Assembly: GCF_015207735.1 (NCBI RefSeq)
Contig: NZ_JADEWG010000022.1
Coordinates: 1-64,000, forward strand
From: [Phormidium] sp. LEGE 05292
Lineage (GTDB): Bacteria; Cyanobacteriota; Cyanobacteriia; Cyanobacteriales; Aerosakkonemataceae
Length of the DNA stretch: 64,000 nucleotides
Direction of reading: 5' to 3'
Shown: one piece after another, positions 56,237 through 62,676 of the stretch
Layout of the letters: every line of letters begins with the position of its first letter
Position numbering within the stretch: the stretch's first letter is position 1
Program-made: the position numbers and the translations under genes
The notes under the pieces: generated by a model
What the model saw: the letters and a program-made list of their open reading frames with translations, nothing else
What the model was told of the DNA's origin: nothing
Database searches by the model: none

Positions 56237-57706
56237 CTATTCAATTGGGCCTAAAATAGAAGCCGATCGAGCAGGTAAATTCAAGCTTAATTGCTGGGAT
56301 TTTCCTGCTTCTTCATTCCAAGAAAATTCAGCTTCACCGTATAGTAATTGACTTGGTTGAGATTGCAAAGTTGTTACTTCAAAGCTGATATTTGCATCTG
56401 AAGTACCGACATTAACAGCAACAATTAATTTTTCATTTACCAAAATTCTGGCAAATACGTAAACTGTTCCTTCTGCGTACAAAATGTGATAGGAACCTGT
56501 ACGAAGTGCGGGATATTTATTCCGTAAAGCGATGAGTTTTTGGTGATATTTGAGAACGTAAACATCCCAGTGGGCTTCCATTGGAAAACCGCGCCGCGAG
56601 TCGGGGTCTAATTTCCCAGGTAAGCCAACTTCATCGCCATAATAAATGCTGGGAGCACCGGGAAATGTTAATAGTAAAACGGTTGCTAGTTCTACGCTGG
56701 CTTTGTCACCTTGGGCGATGGAAATTAATCGTGCTGTGTCATGACTAGCTAATAAATTAAGTTGGGTAAGTTGAATTTCCCAAGGGTAAAGTTGCAGCAA
56801 ATATTCAATTTTTTCGCCGTATTCTTTGGCGAATAAAGGCGGGTAAGGATCGTAAGAACGGTCTTGTACTTGAGAAATGTCTACACGATCGCCAGCCGTA
56901 AAAGCAATAGTTGGCGCAGCAAATAAGTAATTCATTACTCCGTCAAATTGAGTACCATCTAACCATTCGCGGGAGTCTCCCCAAACTTCACCAACTATGT
57001 AAGCTTCGGGGTTGATGGCTTTAACGCGATCGCGAAATTCTTGCCAAAAACCAGGAGTTTTTATTTCAAAAGGTACATCTAATCGCCAGCCATCAATGCC
57101 AAATTTAATCCAATATTCGGCAATTTCCATGATGTATTCGCGCACTTCGGGATTGTCATGATTAAATACTGGCAAAGCGCGATTTCCTGCCCAACCAACA
57201 TAATTTGCTGGATACTCTCCATTGTAAGCAGATACAGGCCAACCTTCAACTTTAAACCAATCCACCCAAGGAGAATGTGGGCCATTTTCTAACACATCAT
57301 GAAAGAAGAAAAAGCCTCGGCTAGAATGATTAAATACCCCGTCCAACACAACTTTAATATCCCGTTTGTGGGCAGCATCTAGTAATTCTTTAAAAGCCGG
57401 ATTTCCCCCCAACATTGGATCTACTTGGTAATAATCATGAGTATGGTATCGGTGGTTACTGGCAGATTGAAAAATGGGGGTAAAATATACAGCATTAATG
57501 CCCAAATCCTGCAAGTAATCCAACTGTTCGATCGCACCCCACAAATCACCACCTTTATAACCTTGGAGTGTTGGCATATCATCCCAAGCTTCCCAAGAGG
57601 CGTTTCTCAAAAGTCGTTTGTGAGGCTGTTTGCTGCGAGCAAACCGATCCGGAAAAATTTGATAAAAAACTGCGTGTTTAACCCAATCTGGAGTGTTTAT
57701 CTGCAT
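56237..57706 (-). CDS. Glycoside hydrolase family 13 (alpha-amylase/neopullulanase-like)
   Basis: A 489-residue GH13 enzyme. Conserved regions are INAVYFTPIF, VVLDGVFNHSS, GWRLDVPFEI (nucleophile Asp, about 210), IVGEVWGD (acid Glu, about 238) and LLASHDTARL (third Asp, about 322). The start WVKHAVFYQIFPDRFARS and YKGGDLWGAIEQLDYLQDLG match neopullulanase/cyclomaltodextrinase enzymes, but the usual N-terminal beta domain of about 120 residues is missing. No signal peptide is seen, so it likely acts on cytoplasmic maltodextrins or glycogen fragments. Confidence 0.92.
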   Translation of the reverse strand: MQINTPDWVKHAVFYQIFPDRFARSKQPHKRLLRNASWEAWDDMPTLQGYKGGDLWGAIEQLDYLQDLGINAVYFTPIFQSASNHRYHTHDYYQVDPMLGGNPAFKELLDAAHKRDIKVVLDGVFNHSSRGFFFFHDVLENGPHSPWVDWFKVEGWPVSAYNGEYPANYVGWAGNRALPVFNHDNPEVREYIMEIAEYWIKFGIDGWRLDVPFEIKTPGFWQEFRDRVKAINPEAYIVGEVWGDSREWLDGTQFDGVMNYLFAAPTIAFTAGDRVDISQVQDRSYDPYPPLFAKEYGEKIEYLLQLYPWEIQLTQLNLLASHDTARLISIAQGDKASVELATVLLLTFPGAPSIYYGDEVGLPGKLDPDSRRGFPMEAHWDVYVLKYHQKLIALRNKYPALRTGSYHILYAEGTVYVFARILVNEKLIVAVNVGTSDANISFEVTTLQSQPSQLLYGEAEFSWNEEAGKSQQLSLNLPARSASILGPIE

Positions 57707-57864: not shown

Positions 57865-60849
57865 ATGGTTAACGTTTTAAATCAGGGTGACGATGACTTA
57901 GTTTCGCTAGATTATAGCGATTTATTACAAAAAATTTCTCAAGTATTAAGTAATCAAACCGTATTTAAATTATCAGGAAGCGATCGCTTAATAATTGACA
58001 TTGACGAAGTAGCGAATCAAGTAGCTAATTTACAGGTACAAAGTCCGCTGACATCTGCGATCGGAGTGCGATCGGCAACGATTAAATTTACGCCAAAATT
58101 CCGGGAAACTTTTCCTAATTTAGTCCGCAATATTCGCGATCGTATCCAACAAACATTAACAGCTACTTTAGGAGAAAACAAATCCCTTCCCGAATTTGTC
58201 AGCAGTTTAACCACTCCTCTCGCATCTTTTCAGGGAAAAAACAACAAATTAGATTTTATTTTTGCCTTCGATCAAGCAACTCCCAATTTACAAAAGCAAA
58301 AACTAACTTTAGATCGTCAAACTCCCGGTAGTGCTTCCTTACTAAAATTACATAAACTCACAATTAAAGTCCACAATACTAATCAATTTACCCAACAACT
58401 TCAACAAGGTTTAGCAAATTATATCGAAACAAAAGCGGAAAGTGATAGTGAAGTTGAAGAGTTAAACGACATTCTCCAAGGAATGTTGCGAAATGATTTA
58501 TCTGACTTTTATCGACTGCAAAGAATTGTCGATACTGAAACTTTGGGAAAACTCAAAAAAGAAGCAAAAATCAGATATTTAGAATATCTCAGAGACAATA
58601 ATGAAATCGCCGATTCCCCGGCAAAAATTTATCTCGAAGATTTGATTCGCCGTTTAAGATTAATTGAAACTTACATTAATGAGAATAAAGCTGATGCTGA
58701 GTACGAAGTTAACTATGCTGGTGCAAGGATTAATTACAAAGAGGTATTTTCCACAGCAGACGTTTTAGACGCTTTACCAATCATTCCCATAATTACCGGA
58801 AACTTGGGAGAAAGTACAGATCAAAATCAAGGAGAAAGACAGTTTGTTTTTGGGATTAAAATGAAGTTTAATAACCCAGTGCAAGCACTCAGCGGGGAAG
58901 AAGTTTTTGAGCATAATTTGAATTTAATTGATCCGGAAAGTGAAGAACATCAAAAAGAACTGCAAAACAAACCAAACTTTGGTGCAAAGGTACTCAGACT
59001 ATTTTTATTATACTTTTTTGTCTTTGCTTGCCCTAATCCGAACGAAGCGGGTTATCATCCAAACAATGACCTAAATTACGATCCGATCGCTGCTTTTGCA
59101 AGAATAATGGTTACACTTCGCGGATCGGATGAAGAAGCAAAGAAAAAGCTTTTTAAAGGCATGATTCGCGGATTTAAGGATTATAAAGTAATCGATAAAA
59201 TTAATGCTTTGAAAGCATTACTCAAAGATTTAATTAAAAGACAAACTGTTTTACCTACAAGAAACTATCCGCTACAGATTAGCGTTAGGAAAGGAATTTT
59301 AGAGCAAGATATCGACAGTATTTTCAACAAACTAAGTTTTTTCAATGAAGTTTTAGCGAACAATCCTAAAGAATGCTTGAGATACATTTCTATTGGTGAA
59401 TCTTATATTGATAACAATGCGCTTTGTCAATTACCTGGGAGTATCACGATTGAAGATATCCGCTATTTTTCTAGCGAAGAACGTCAAGAATTTCGCATGA
59501 AATTCGATATCGAAAACATCGATACTTTACCAGTAATTTTGGTTCCGAAACAAGACAAATCTAGGGAAGTATATCGAGAGTCTTTTAGTAAGAATAAATT
59601 AATTATTTTTCCCTTCAACAATCGACGTTTAGACGAAAATAAGCAGGGTTTAAACTCAACTCAAGCTTTTATTTATCGTTTTACATTCTCCTTGCTGGCG
59701 TATCTTTGCTTAAATATTTTATTGGAAGCTACACCAAAGAGTTTATTTGTACCGATGGTGAGATTGCACGAAGGCGATCGCCAAAATCCCGCACCTTCCG
59801 AAAAATTTGTCGCCAATCTTAGCAAAACATTATCTCATTTATTGAGCGAAAAACATCGAGTAACTTCTCAAGGTTTCCGAGTCAAAAACTTGAATAGCTT
59901 CAAAATAAATAATGGGTTATATTCCCTCTATTCCGTATTGCCAAAAAAATTCCGCTTTAGCAATCCTAATGATACTCCCCAGTTAGAAAAACTAGCAATT
60001 ATTGTTGTTTCCAGCTTAGAAAGCGACGCGAGAACAGGTAACAGAAATCGCTTAAATCGCATCTCTAATTTAATAGGAGAAGTAGTCACTGTCAACCGCA
60101 AAAACAACGGTGTGATTGGTTTAGAAATTATCCAAACCTTTTCTGATAATTATTACAACGATCGCTTGTATCGAGACCCACCAATTCTTTTAGACACAGT
60201 AAACAATCTCTATGAAGCTGGATATCGACACTTTGTATATATTGCCAAAGCACCTTACACAAGTAGCTTACATATAACCCAAACAGATGAAGATGAAGGA
60301 TTATATTTTATGTCCCCAAAACTAGTTGAAGAATTGAGGGGAAATCGCCACGACATTAACATTTATCCGGTATTTTTTGATAAATATTATGTGAAAAAAT
60401 CCCAAACTCTAAAGTCAAAATCTTTTTACATTCAAGATACTGGACAATTACTAAATCTTGCAGAAGATCCCTGTCACCAAGCAATTGTTTTCTTCAATCT
60501 TTTTAACGGAATCACAGTGGGTAAAGGGGACGATCGCTTTTACAACGGCGTAATTTCCTACTCTACACTAATCGGTATTTACCCAGGAGTTTTGGACGAT
60601 CGAGAAATCCGACAAGCTTTAATGAATGATGATAGTACCTTGAAAAATGACATTCTCCAATACCTCACACTCTTTCACTTTTCCCGATTTGAAAAAGACA
60701 AAGATATTAGCTTAAAACTCGACCCTTATCAAAACATTATTGGCGACGAAGCATTCAGTAAATTGTCTGTCTTTAACCATAGTAGAGGCGAGGTTGAATT
60801 TAACTCATTGGCATTTTTAACCGAAGTTAAACAATATTTAAACCCTTAG
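57865..60849 (+). CDS. Large protein of unknown family (994 residues)
   Basis: I do not recognise this protein. It has no signal peptide and is largely charged and mixed alpha/beta. Hydrophobic stretches occur at about 372-388 (VLRLFLLYFFVFACPNP) and 602-625 (IYRFTFSLLAYLCLNILLEA), the latter possibly a buried helix. Residues 1-330 are helix-rich (DSEVEELNDILQGMLRNDL). The region from about 700 shows alternating strands and helices: KLAIIVVSSLESD, VIGLEIIQTFSDNY, LYEAGYRHFVYIAKAP, INIYPVFFDKYY and VISYSTLIGIYPGVLDDREI. The gene uses HIP1-type GCGATCGC like its neighbours, so it is not an obvious recent import. No partner gene is adjacent. Confidence 0.8.
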   Translation: MVNVLNQGDDDLVSLDYSDLLQKISQVLSNQTVFKLSGSDRLIIDIDEVANQVANLQVQSPLTSAIGVRSATIKFTPKFRETFPNLVRNIRDRIQQTLTATLGENKSLPEFVSSLTTPLASFQGKNNKLDFIFAFDQATPNLQKQKLTLDRQTPGSASLLKLHKLTIKVHNTNQFTQQLQQGLANYIETKAESDSEVEELNDILQGMLRNDLSDFYRLQRIVDTETLGKLKKEAKIRYLEYLRDNNEIADSPAKIYLEDLIRRLRLIETYINENKADAEYEVNYAGARINYKEVFSTADVLDALPIIPIITGNLGESTDQNQGERQFVFGIKMKFNNPVQALSGEEVFEHNLNLIDPESEEHQKELQNKPNFGAKVLRLFLLYFFVFACPNPNEAGYHPNNDLNYDPIAAFARIMVTLRGSDEEAKKKLFKGMIRGFKDYKVIDKINALKALLKDLIKRQTVLPTRNYPLQISVRKGILEQDIDSIFNKLSFFNEVLANNPKECLRYISIGESYIDNNALCQLPGSITIEDIRYFSSEERQEFRMKFDIENIDTLPVILVPKQDKSREVYRESFSKNKLIIFPFNNRRLDENKQGLNSTQAFIYRFTFSLLAYLCLNILLEATPKSLFVPMVRLHEGDRQNPAPSEKFVANLSKTLSHLLSEKHRVTSQGFRVKNLNSFKINNGLYSLYSVLPKKFRFSNPNDTPQLEKLAIIVVSSLESDARTGNRNRLNRISNLIGEVVTVNRKNNGVIGLEIIQTFSDNYYNDRLYRDPPILLDTVNNLYEAGYRHFVYIAKAPYTSSLHITQTDEDEGLYFMSPKLVEELRGNRHDINIYPVFFDKYYVKKSQTLKSKSFYIQDTGQLLNLAEDPCHQAIVFFNLFNGITVGKGDDRFYNGVISYSTLIGIYPGVLDDREIRQALMNDDSTLKNDILQYLTLFHFSRFEKDKDISLKLDPYQNIIGDEAFSKLSVFNHSRGEVEFNSLAFLTEVKQYLNP

Positions 60850-61136
60850 TTTGTAGGGTGCGTCAAATACAAATGCGAGAAAAAATTTATACAGATAGAT
60901 ATTTGTTAACTTCCAATGAGTTAAATGTGCTAAATTTGATTCTGTCTAAAAAAGACTAATAACGGTGATTTAAAGTGTACCAAGCTTTGGTTTTAATAAT
61001 GTTGAGTCGAGCTACTTGTGCTAATATTTGAGCATATAAATGCACTCGAACCTAAGTGGAGGCAGAAAATAATAGAAAGAAAGATACCCAATAGTTGATT
61101 ATATAAAGAGCGATCGCCATCTCCACAACTACCTCT
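60850..61136. other. Spacer after the unknown large gene
   Basis: AT-rich, with no open frame of note and no clear terminator. A short 61.1-kb HIP-like GAGCGATCGC site is the only recognisable motif. It continues into the Uma2 tail fragment and a tandem 9-bp repeat before glgC. Confidence 0.5.
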
Positions 61137-61278: not shown

Positions 61279-61386
61279 CTGCGGGTAACTCCAAAAAAAT
61301 GCCCAGTTCCTCCTTTTCCCCCTTGCCAACTGTTCCCCACAGTCCGACACTGGACTTGGGAACGTTTGGCAGTGAGAGGTTTTTTT

Positions 61387-62676
61387 GTGAAAAGAGTTTT
61401 ATCTGTTATTCTCGGTGGCGGCGCAGGGACTCGTCTTTACCCCCTAACCAAACTACGCGCCAAGCCAGCAGTACCCTTAGCAGGGAAATATCGCCTCATC
61501 GATATTCCCGTAAGTAACTGCATCAACTCAGAAATTTACAAAATCTACGTCCTGACTCAATTTAACTCTGCCTCACTCAACCGTCATATTGCCCGCGCAT
61601 ACAACTTTGCTGGCTTCACTGATGGGTTTGTAGAAGTACTAGCTGCCCAGCAAACACCGGAAAACCCTAACTGGTTCCAAGGTACGGCTGACGCAGTTCG
61701 TCAATATATGTGGCTATTCCAAGAGTGGGATGTGGATGAATATTTAATCCTTTCGGGAGATCACCTCTACCGGATGGACTATCGTTTGTTCGTGCAACGT
61801 CACCGCGAAACCAACGCCGATATCACCATCTCCGTTGTGCCGATGGACGAAAAACGTGCCTCGGACTTCGGTTTAATGAAAATTGACGACAACGGTAGAG
61901 TAGTTGACTTTAGCGAAAAGCCCAAAGGTGAAGCCCTCAAACAAATGCAGGTGGACACCAAGGTTTTGGGGCTGACGGCAGAAGAAGCTGTAAAAATGCC
62001 CTACATCGCTTCTATGGGGATCTATGTCTTTAAAAAAGATGTGTTGTTGGAACTGCTAAAAGCATACCCAGACAGTACAGACTTCGGTAAGGAAATTATT
62101 CCCGCATCATCGAAAGATCACAACGTTCAAGCTTACCTATTTAACGGGTATTGGGAAGATATCGGAACCATTGAAGCGTTCTACGATGCCAACTTAGCCT
62201 TAACCAGACAACCCCGCCCGCCCTTTAGCTTCTACGACGAAACTGCCCCCATATACACTCGTGCTCGTTACCTACCACCAACAAAATTGTTAGATTGTAA
62301 TGTAACGGAATCGATGATTGGAGAAGGCTGTATCTTAAAAAATTGCCGCATCGCTCATTCAGTATTGGGAGTGCGAAGTCGTGTAGAAGCTGGTTGTTTA
62401 ATCGAAGATGCCCTAATTATGGGGGCAGACTTTTACCAACCTTTTAGCGAACGGGAATCTGATTGCCATCATACTCAAGTCCCATTAGGCATCGGCGCAA
62501 ACACCACAATTCGGCGTGCGATCGTTGACAAAAATGCCCACATCGGTTGTGATGTCCAAATTATCAACAAAGACAATGTACAAGAAGCCGATCGCGAAAA
62601 CCTCGGATTCTATATCCGTAGCGGCATCGTCGTTGTCTTGAAAAATGCCGTTATTCCCGATGGCACAATCATTTAG
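61387..62676 (+). CDS. glgC: Glucose-1-phosphate adenylyltransferase (ADP-glucose pyrophosphorylase)
   Basis: The 429-residue enzyme makes ADP-glucose, the committed step of glycogen synthesis, under 3-phosphoglycerate/phosphate control. The N-terminal pyrophosphorylase motif is [19 protein letters not shown], followed by [45 protein letters not shown] (catalytic Asp) and [10 protein letters not shown]-terminal beta-helix repeats end in [19 protein letters not shown], with activator lysines. The start is GTG 61387, preceded by GAGAGG; it gives the family N terminus ([10 protein letters not shown]). In-frame TTG 61366 would add seven extra residues. The TAG stop begins a heptamer repeat. Confidence 0.96.

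What the first reader, a model, noticed from the sequence alone, without database searches (positions are those of the whole stretch)
57865..60849. A 994-residue protein of no recognised family
Seen: intact long frame, no signal peptide, helix-rich first third, and a C-terminal 300 residues with regularly alternating strands and helices (KLAIIVVSSLESD, LYEAGYRHFVYIAKAP, INIYPVFFDKYY, YSTLIGIYPGVLDDREI). Inference: the C-terminal pattern is compatible with a Rossmann- or RNase H/PIWI-like core with acidic residues, which would make this a candidate for a new nucleic-acid or defence enzyme. I have no motif proof. It stands alone between an amylase and glgC.
Basis: partly seen in the sequence, partly recalled or inferred. 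Interest (0 to 1): 0.7.

Follow-up and report, generated by a model that had tools for sequence, protein, structure and literature searches.

The report
Orphaned Argonaute-like protein missing helicase partner
The unidentified cyanobacterial protein is predicted to fold like Argonaute, the protein at the heart of RNA interference, and its relatives usually travel with a helicase gene, of which only a stub remains here; the pair looks like an undescribed guided system against foreign DNA, which is still to be tested.

Summary
The 994-codon gene at 57865-60849 is real: it aligns with 82 relatives at 42-65% identity, and no sequence library names it. AlphaFold2 gives a confident model (pLDDT 87.6). 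The family is not solitary: 67 of 83 genes are followed by all or part of a ~1215-residue SF2 helicase gene, 54 of the 67 overlapping or within 300 bp. In the window that partner is deleted; about its last 28 codons survive just after the focal stop. A same-genus relative keeps the whole pair at the same site. A complete second pair lies elsewhere in this genome, beside a Fic gene and a relaxase. Conserved positions suggest a guide-binding, non-cutting Argonaute (inference). Best reading: a guided sensor that recruits a helicase against foreign DNA, working like DdmDE or ApsAB, but not filed in any family tested. Function is unproven.

The parts
57865..60849 (+). Focal gene F: 994-residue Argonaute-like protein, stop included
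   Evidence: homologs; model; fold
57865..59454 (+). N-terminal lobe, residues 1-530: partly helical; alignments to Argonautes begin near residue 145, the first 144 residues are hardly covered
   Evidence: presence or absence of PAZ not settled
59587..59964 (+). MID-like Rossmann-type domain, residues 575-700, with conserved Q669-G670, N683, K694
   Evidence: secondary structure; short pAgo rows start at model residue 529-532; conservation
59977..60846 (+). PIWI/RNase H-like domain, residues 705-994; VSS at 715-717 and A794 stand where catalytic Asp would be expected (hand mapping)
60870..60959 (+). Remnant of the deleted helicase partner P: about its last 28 codons and its stop
   Evidence: tblastn 60870-60953, 82% identity, E 2e-8; whole-genome search; reading; 86% DNA identity over 92 nt to the 3' end of G001's intact P
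56237..57706 (-). Flank: alpha-amylase-type gene; also directly upstream of F in same-genus G001
61366..62676 (+). Flank: glgC-type gene; in the G001 stretch examined the sequence after P is different

Best explanation
F is a very divergent Argonaute-like protein (MID plus PIWI lobes), probably unable to cut. It is the first gene of a two-gene system whose second gene, P, is a large SF2 helicase. Proposed mechanism: F binds a short nucleic-acid guide, or a free 5' end, in its MID pocket and recognises matching foreign nucleic acid. It then loads P, which translocates and unwinds the target and so destroys or destabilises invading plasmids or phage DNA, directly or with host nucleases. In this strain the cognate P has been deleted except for about 28 codons. 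F is therefore an orphan, which may be non-functional, may use the second P elsewhere in the genome, or may have a helicase-free role. Shown: intact frame, fold match of a predicted model, linkage with P, deletion of P. Inferred: guide binding, loss of slicing, recruitment of P, defence.
For: Fold: pLDDT 87.6, pTM 0.86; 8 of 8 PDB matches with E<=0.001 come from Argonaute/PIWI structures or complexes; best second-look row human Ago2, Z 9.0; short pAgo chains align over model 529-990 with 340 of 452 and 350 of 469 residues. Linkage: of 83 F genes, 67 have all or part of P downstream: 28 overlap it, 10 lie within 50 bp, 16 within 51-300 bp, 13 further (longest open frames); 9 had too short a flank, the window slice among them; 7 lack it, 3 of these being the second F of an F-P-F array. 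P is an SF2 helicase: Pfam Helicase_C 2e-9 to 6e-7 in 4 of 4 scanned, Foldseek UvrB 3e-8, Brr2, HrpA, BLM, Brr2 Z 13.5. MID: Q669 99%, G670 100%, N683 100%, K694 98% of 83, like the Y-x3-K..QG..K motif reported for ApsB (PMC11096173, passages). Mobility: 6 of 6 plasmid hits are typed conjugative. At the site shared with G001, F has dS 1.21 against 0.27-0.35 for four neighbours; the second pair has dS 0.13-0.14. Patchy: 29 of 60 relatives and 43 of 386 genomes of the phylum, own genome, weak and broken matches included.
Against: Global TM-scores are low (0.17-0.22 of the query for the 8 best), and Z 9.0 is only a little over the 7-8 usual for models without a clear match. Profile-profile comparison with cyanobacterial pAgos and pPIWI-RE found nothing, though its positive control (pPIWI-RE against pAgo) failed too. 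No nuclease domain was recognised in P. The pair often sits at a fixed chromosomal place: 18 of 79 stretches carry a purQ-like gene and 22 a small ~89-residue gene beside it (names by reading), which is less typical of a defence island. F is found without P in the stretch held in L076, L093, L102 and L125. No phage record or viral contig gave F (the latter by two short patterns). Neighbours were scanned for defence families in four loci only, ten proteins. No functional data.
Confidence: 0.5

Rival explanations
1. F-P is a housekeeping repair or R-loop/recombination-intermediate module of filamentous cyanobacteria: F is a nucleic-acid-binding PIWI-like protein that guides the helicase to damaged or transcribed DNA, with no defence role.
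For: Fixed chromosomal places in many Nostocales and Microcoleus loci; helicase fold matches include UvrB, RecQ-type and Brr2.
Against: Patchy presence, 43 of 386 genomes of the phylum; copies on conjugative plasmids and beside a relaxase; F at a syntenic site far more divergent than its neighbours; F-P-F tandems and loss of P.
Confidence: 0.25
2. The window copy is a dying gene: after P was deleted F has no function and is intact only because the loss is recent. (Compatible with the best explanation for the family.)
For: P is reduced to about 28 codons at exactly this place; G008 shows a broken F together with a P 3'-end remnant.
Against: F frame intact; identity to five relatives of the same family is 62.7-65.3% for the window copy and 61.6-65.8% for G001's, so no visible acceleration; intact F genes without P in the stretch held in four other loci; a second P in the genome might serve in trans.
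Confidence: 0.45
3. The family is a far branch of ApsAB or DdmDE that sequence methods cannot see, rather than a separate invention. (A question of ancestry, compatible with the proposed mechanism.)
For: Same two-part logic of Argonaute-like protein plus SF2 helicase, anti-plasmid in both (PMC11096173 and PMC12409362, passages); ApsAB-like systems are reported in some cyanobacteria; shared QG in the MID motif.
Against: ApsB is reported to lack the PIWI RNase H fold, whereas F's matches include it. No DdmD/DdmE-named PADLOC hit. PDB sequence searches with both profiles listed neither DdmD nor DdmE (presence of those entries in the copy not verified). The C-terminal PD-(D/E)XK nuclease of DdmD/ApsA was not recognised in P.
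Confidence: 0.25

Closest known systems
DdmDE (DdmE inactive long pAgo + DdmD SF2 helicase-nuclease)
   Same: Two proteins, an Argonaute-like one without slicing plus an SF2 helicase
   Different: No sequence match found; no C-terminal nuclease recognised in P; function here untested (PMC12409362, passages only)
ApsAB (ApsB Argonaute-like + ApsA helicase-nuclease)
   Same: Argonaute-like and SF2 helicase proteins together, MID motif with QG and a following K
   Different: ApsB (last residue reported 743) is reported to lack the PIWI fold; reported ApsA motifs GFGKS/DELH/QAVGRVER against GNPGIGKTT/DEITG/QVIYRGRG in P
pPIWI-RE three-gene system
   Same: Divergent PIWI module with an SF2 helicase, predicted anti-plasmid/phage role
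   Different: No PF13032 match in F; the unit is F then P, not REase-DinG-PIWI (PMC3702460: abstract, section 5 and first part of section 6). This genome carries a separate PF13032 match
Long and short prokaryotic Argonautes, including inactive ones (long-B, SPARTA, SPARSA, SPARDA)
   Same: MID-PIWI with partner effectors; folds align over model 529-990. Helicases, some with nuclease motifs, are already reported in pAgo operons (PMC6299218, passages)
   Different: No PF02171 match; the partner is one dedicated helicase family without a recognised nuclease, SIR2 or TIR part

Membership tests
Argonaute/PIWI superfamily (by fold) | MID-PIWI fold | tested here: met
   8 of 8 matches with E<=0.001 from Argonaute/PIWI structures or complexes, prob 0.99-1.00; Z up to 9.0. 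Predicted model, low global TM
Argonaute/PIWI superfamily (by fold) | Sequence match to Pfam Piwi PF02171 | tested here: not met
   window protein 0 Pfam families at E<=5; own genome 0 PF02171 matches; not among the 25 of 44 families shown for 47 members
Argonaute/PIWI superfamily (by fold) | DEDX catalytic tetrad (active members only) | tested here: inconclusive
   hand mapping: VSS and A794 at the expected places in 9 of 9 divergent members; in 83, S716 99%, S717 93%, A794 81% with S 17%; no coordinates for superposition; the second and fourth positions were not settled
Argonaute/PIWI superfamily (by fold) | MID 5'-guide motif Y-x3-K..Q..K | tested here: inconclusive
   Q669 99%, G670 100%, K694 98% of 83; QG in 9 of 9 and K694 in 7 of 9 divergent members; the Y is F648 and the first K is unclear
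Argonaute/PIWI superfamily (by fold) | PAZ domain | not tested
   region 172-530 not folded or searched separately
pPIWI-RE | RNaseH_pPIWI_RE profile match (PF13032) | tested here: not met
   in the own genome the PF13032 search rang once, at C11, not at the window or at F2
pPIWI-RE | REase - DinG helicase - PIWI three-gene order | tested here: not met
   the conserved unit is F-P; definition from PMC3702460
DdmDE | Sequence relation of F/P to DdmE/DdmD | tested here: inconclusive
   no such PADLOC hit, no such PDB sequence hit; presence of these models or entries in the copies not verified
DdmDE / ApsAB | Helicase with C-terminal PD-(D/E)XK nuclease | tested here: inconclusive
   no nuclease family over the C-terminal part in 4 P proteins and no such motif seen by eye among invariant columns after 950; domain not folded alone
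ApsAB | ApsB lacks the PIWI RNase H fold | tested here: not met
   F has it by fold search; statement on ApsB from PMC11096173, passage
SF2 helicase (partner P) | Walker A/B and helicase motifs, RecA-like tandem | tested here: met

The most novel reading that the evidence does not exclude
A separate class of guide-directed immunity, restricted to one cyanobacterial order in what was searched: a non-cutting Argonaute visible only by structure that directs a dedicated Ski2/UvrB-like helicase rather than a nuclease, so that invading DNA is defeated by unwinding or stripping, with orphan F genes acting as alternative specificities for a shared helicase (as F-P-F arrays suggest).
Probability: 0.3. 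Interest if true: 0.82.

Novelty: new variant of a known kind. Interest (0 to 1): 0.66.

Why it matters
It adds an Argonaute-like family that no sequence library scanned here names, with a helicase partner of its own, in filamentous cyanobacteria such as Microcoleus, Oscillatoria, Anabaena and Trichodesmium. If it limits plasmids, it could bear on how easily such strains take up DNA, and it would give another Argonaute-helicase pair for testing how guided helicases defeat DNA.

Tried and rejected
Sequence routes gave nothing for F: Pfam, NCBIfam, PADLOC, PHROGs, PDB sequences by single protein and by profile. Weak hits such as Rpb4 at 0.44 and MICAL1 at 0.7 were taken as chance. hhalign of F against 17 proteins found with PF02171 and 7 with PF13032 (longest open frames, one of the 7 broken) found nothing, but pPIWI-RE against pAgo also gave nothing, so the test has no power.

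A single-protein scan of genome contigs found nothing; the profile scan worked (140 encoding stretches, best 80 kept, 78 loci). Viral contigs and phages: none. Weak matches in G101 and G113 (E 6e-5 to 9e-4) were not followed.

No DdmD, DdmE or ApsAB structure appeared among the 50 rows shown in each; such absence excludes nothing. No paper describing this family was seen in search listings 45, 62, 66, 85, 86, 96, 97; these cover open-licence PMC papers only, and listings were cut at 12-25 rows.

Full report
Observation. The frame at 57865-60849 is open over 994 codons. It is a conserved protein: it aligns with 82 relatives from named genomes at 42-65% identity. In some searches the matching rows are the own genome or 'same order'. 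The named loci are Microcoleus, Oscillatoria, Anabaena, Trichodesmium, Okeania and similar cyanobacteria. The window protein has no Pfam, NCBIfam or PADLOC family and no PDB sequence match at E<=5.

Fold. A model built from 83 sequences has mean pLDDT 87.6 and pTM 0.86. Residues 579-698 alternate strands and helices; 709-764 are three long strands followed by helix 773-784 and strand 789-795, the order of an RNase H fold. In Foldseek against PDB, the 8 matches with E<=0.001 come from Argonaute/PIWI structures or complexes (Hili 9.8e-6, T. thermophilus Ago 3.4e-5, SPARDA 7.3e-4, its chain not identified by me); NurA follows at 0.011. The second aligner ranks human Ago2 first (Z 9.0, 4.9 A, 367 residues, model 145-986), and short Argonautes cover model 529-990. 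Of the 50 rows shown 49 are from Argonaute/PIWI entries; the other is chain D of the CDK8 kinase module, Med13 by recall, itself reported as a PIWI-type protein (PMC3702460). Global TM-scores of the 8 best are low (0.17-0.22 of the query), so this is a distant relation of fold, not of sequence.

Partner. Clustering of neighbours in 79 stretches (78 loci and the window), which hold 83 F genes, found one dominant partner, P, in 67 stretches. Counted per F gene: 67 of 83 have all or part of P downstream, 28 overlapping (20 by 4 bases, 7 by 1, 1 by 35), 10 within 50 bp, 16 within 51-300 bp, 13 further away, up to 5.7 kb; 9 had too short a flank to tell (the window slice among them); 7 have none, 3 of these being the second F in F-P-F arrays. 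P is an SF2 helicase by Pfam in 4 of 4 scanned, by motifs GNPGIGKTT, DEITG, SRGLSFP and QVIYRGRG (the first and last identical and the other two identical or close in 7 of 7 divergent members) and by fold (model pLDDT 82.9; UvrB, Brr2, HrpA, BLM).

The window copy. Directly after the focal stop, 60870-60959 encodes about the last 28 residues of P and its stop, 86% identical in DNA over 92 nt to the end of the intact P of same-genus G001. Searching the whole genome with a P protein gave one complete P elsewhere (C31), this remnant, and one chance-level match. G001 has the same four upstream genes, then F and an intact 1210-residue P. So 'stands alone' is the result of a deletion.

Mobility. Between the window and G001, four upstream genes have dS 0.27-0.35 and 91-96% protein identity, but F has dS 1.21 (near saturation) and 71% identity, while the second pair has dS 0.13-0.14: F at this site was probably exchanged for a foreign allele in one lineage, and the second pair moved recently (inference). 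All 6 plasmid records with F are typed conjugative. In the two of these that were read, a P gene follows F; it is annotated 'helicase-related protein' in NC_007412 and 'ATP-binding protein' in NZ_CP026684; in the first a Sacsin-type gene matching PADLOC TmtA comes next. The second pair of the own genome lies next to a Fic gene (PADLOC SoFic, 1e-34) and a MobA/VirD2-type relaxase. In G001, after a small frame, a gene with caspase-like, nSTAND and WD40 parts follows the pair. These are selected loci, ten proteins in all, not a census of islands. Against mobility, 18 of 79 stretches carry a purQ-like gene and 22 a small ~89-residue gene beside the pair, that is, fixed chromosomal places.

Mechanism. 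The MID-like region keeps Q669-G670, N683 and K694 in 98-100% of 83; in 9 divergent members QG is kept in 9, N683 in 7 and K694 in 7 (Q in the other two). This recalls the guide-end motif of ApsB, of which one lysine was shown to be needed (PMC11096173, passages). At the end of the first PIWI strand all 9 divergent members have VSS, and at the fourth strand Y-I-A (Y-L-A in one), where active Argonautes have aspartates (my mapping, expected places recalled). I therefore propose a non-cutting, guide-binding sensor that loads a helicase on foreign DNA, as DdmE does with DdmD (PMC12409362, passages). The fold of a predicted model, the partnership and the deletion are shown; guide binding, loss of cutting, recruitment and defence are inferred.

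Naming. It works like DdmDE, ApsAB and pPIWI-RE in having an Argonaute-like protein with an SF2 helicase, but it is not filed in any: PF13032 and PF02171 do not match, the three-gene order is absent, ApsB is reported to lack the PIWI fold that F has, and the nuclease of DdmD/ApsA was not recognised in P. Helicases in operons of ordinary pAgos have been reported before (PMC6299218, passages). ApsAB-like systems have been reported in some cyanobacteria, and I could not compare with those sequences; a remote kinship stays open.

Noticed in passing
G000:C11:14726-15586 (L189): The window's own genome carries a PF13032 (pPIWI-RE) gene with two large genes before it on the same strand (453, 1175 and 944 residues), the layout expected of the pPIWI-RE system; the other two were not scanned.
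   Followed up: partly
L190 (G001:C40): A third F-P pair, F about 31% identical, in the same-genus genome, near a weak viperin-like radical SAM hit, an ASCH protein, an HTH-peptidase gene and a DUF4186 gene.
   Followed up: partly
L054, L081, L083, L090: Tandem F-P-F arrays (F-P-F-P in L054, the last P cut by the contig end), as if one helicase served two Argonaute-like proteins.
   Followed up: no
L062, L064, L068, L074, L075, L098: Other open frames lie between F and P, the gap reaching 5.7 kb; the site seems to attract insertions.
   Followed up: no
G008:C566 (L030): A broken F with a remnant of the P 3' end: another decayed pair in the same family.
   Followed up: no
P proteins, residues 150-220 (A3): Conserved hairpin GEFLKADTL...VDLS resembling a PD-(D/E)XK core with its lysine replaced; perhaps a degenerate nuclease.
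   Followed up: no
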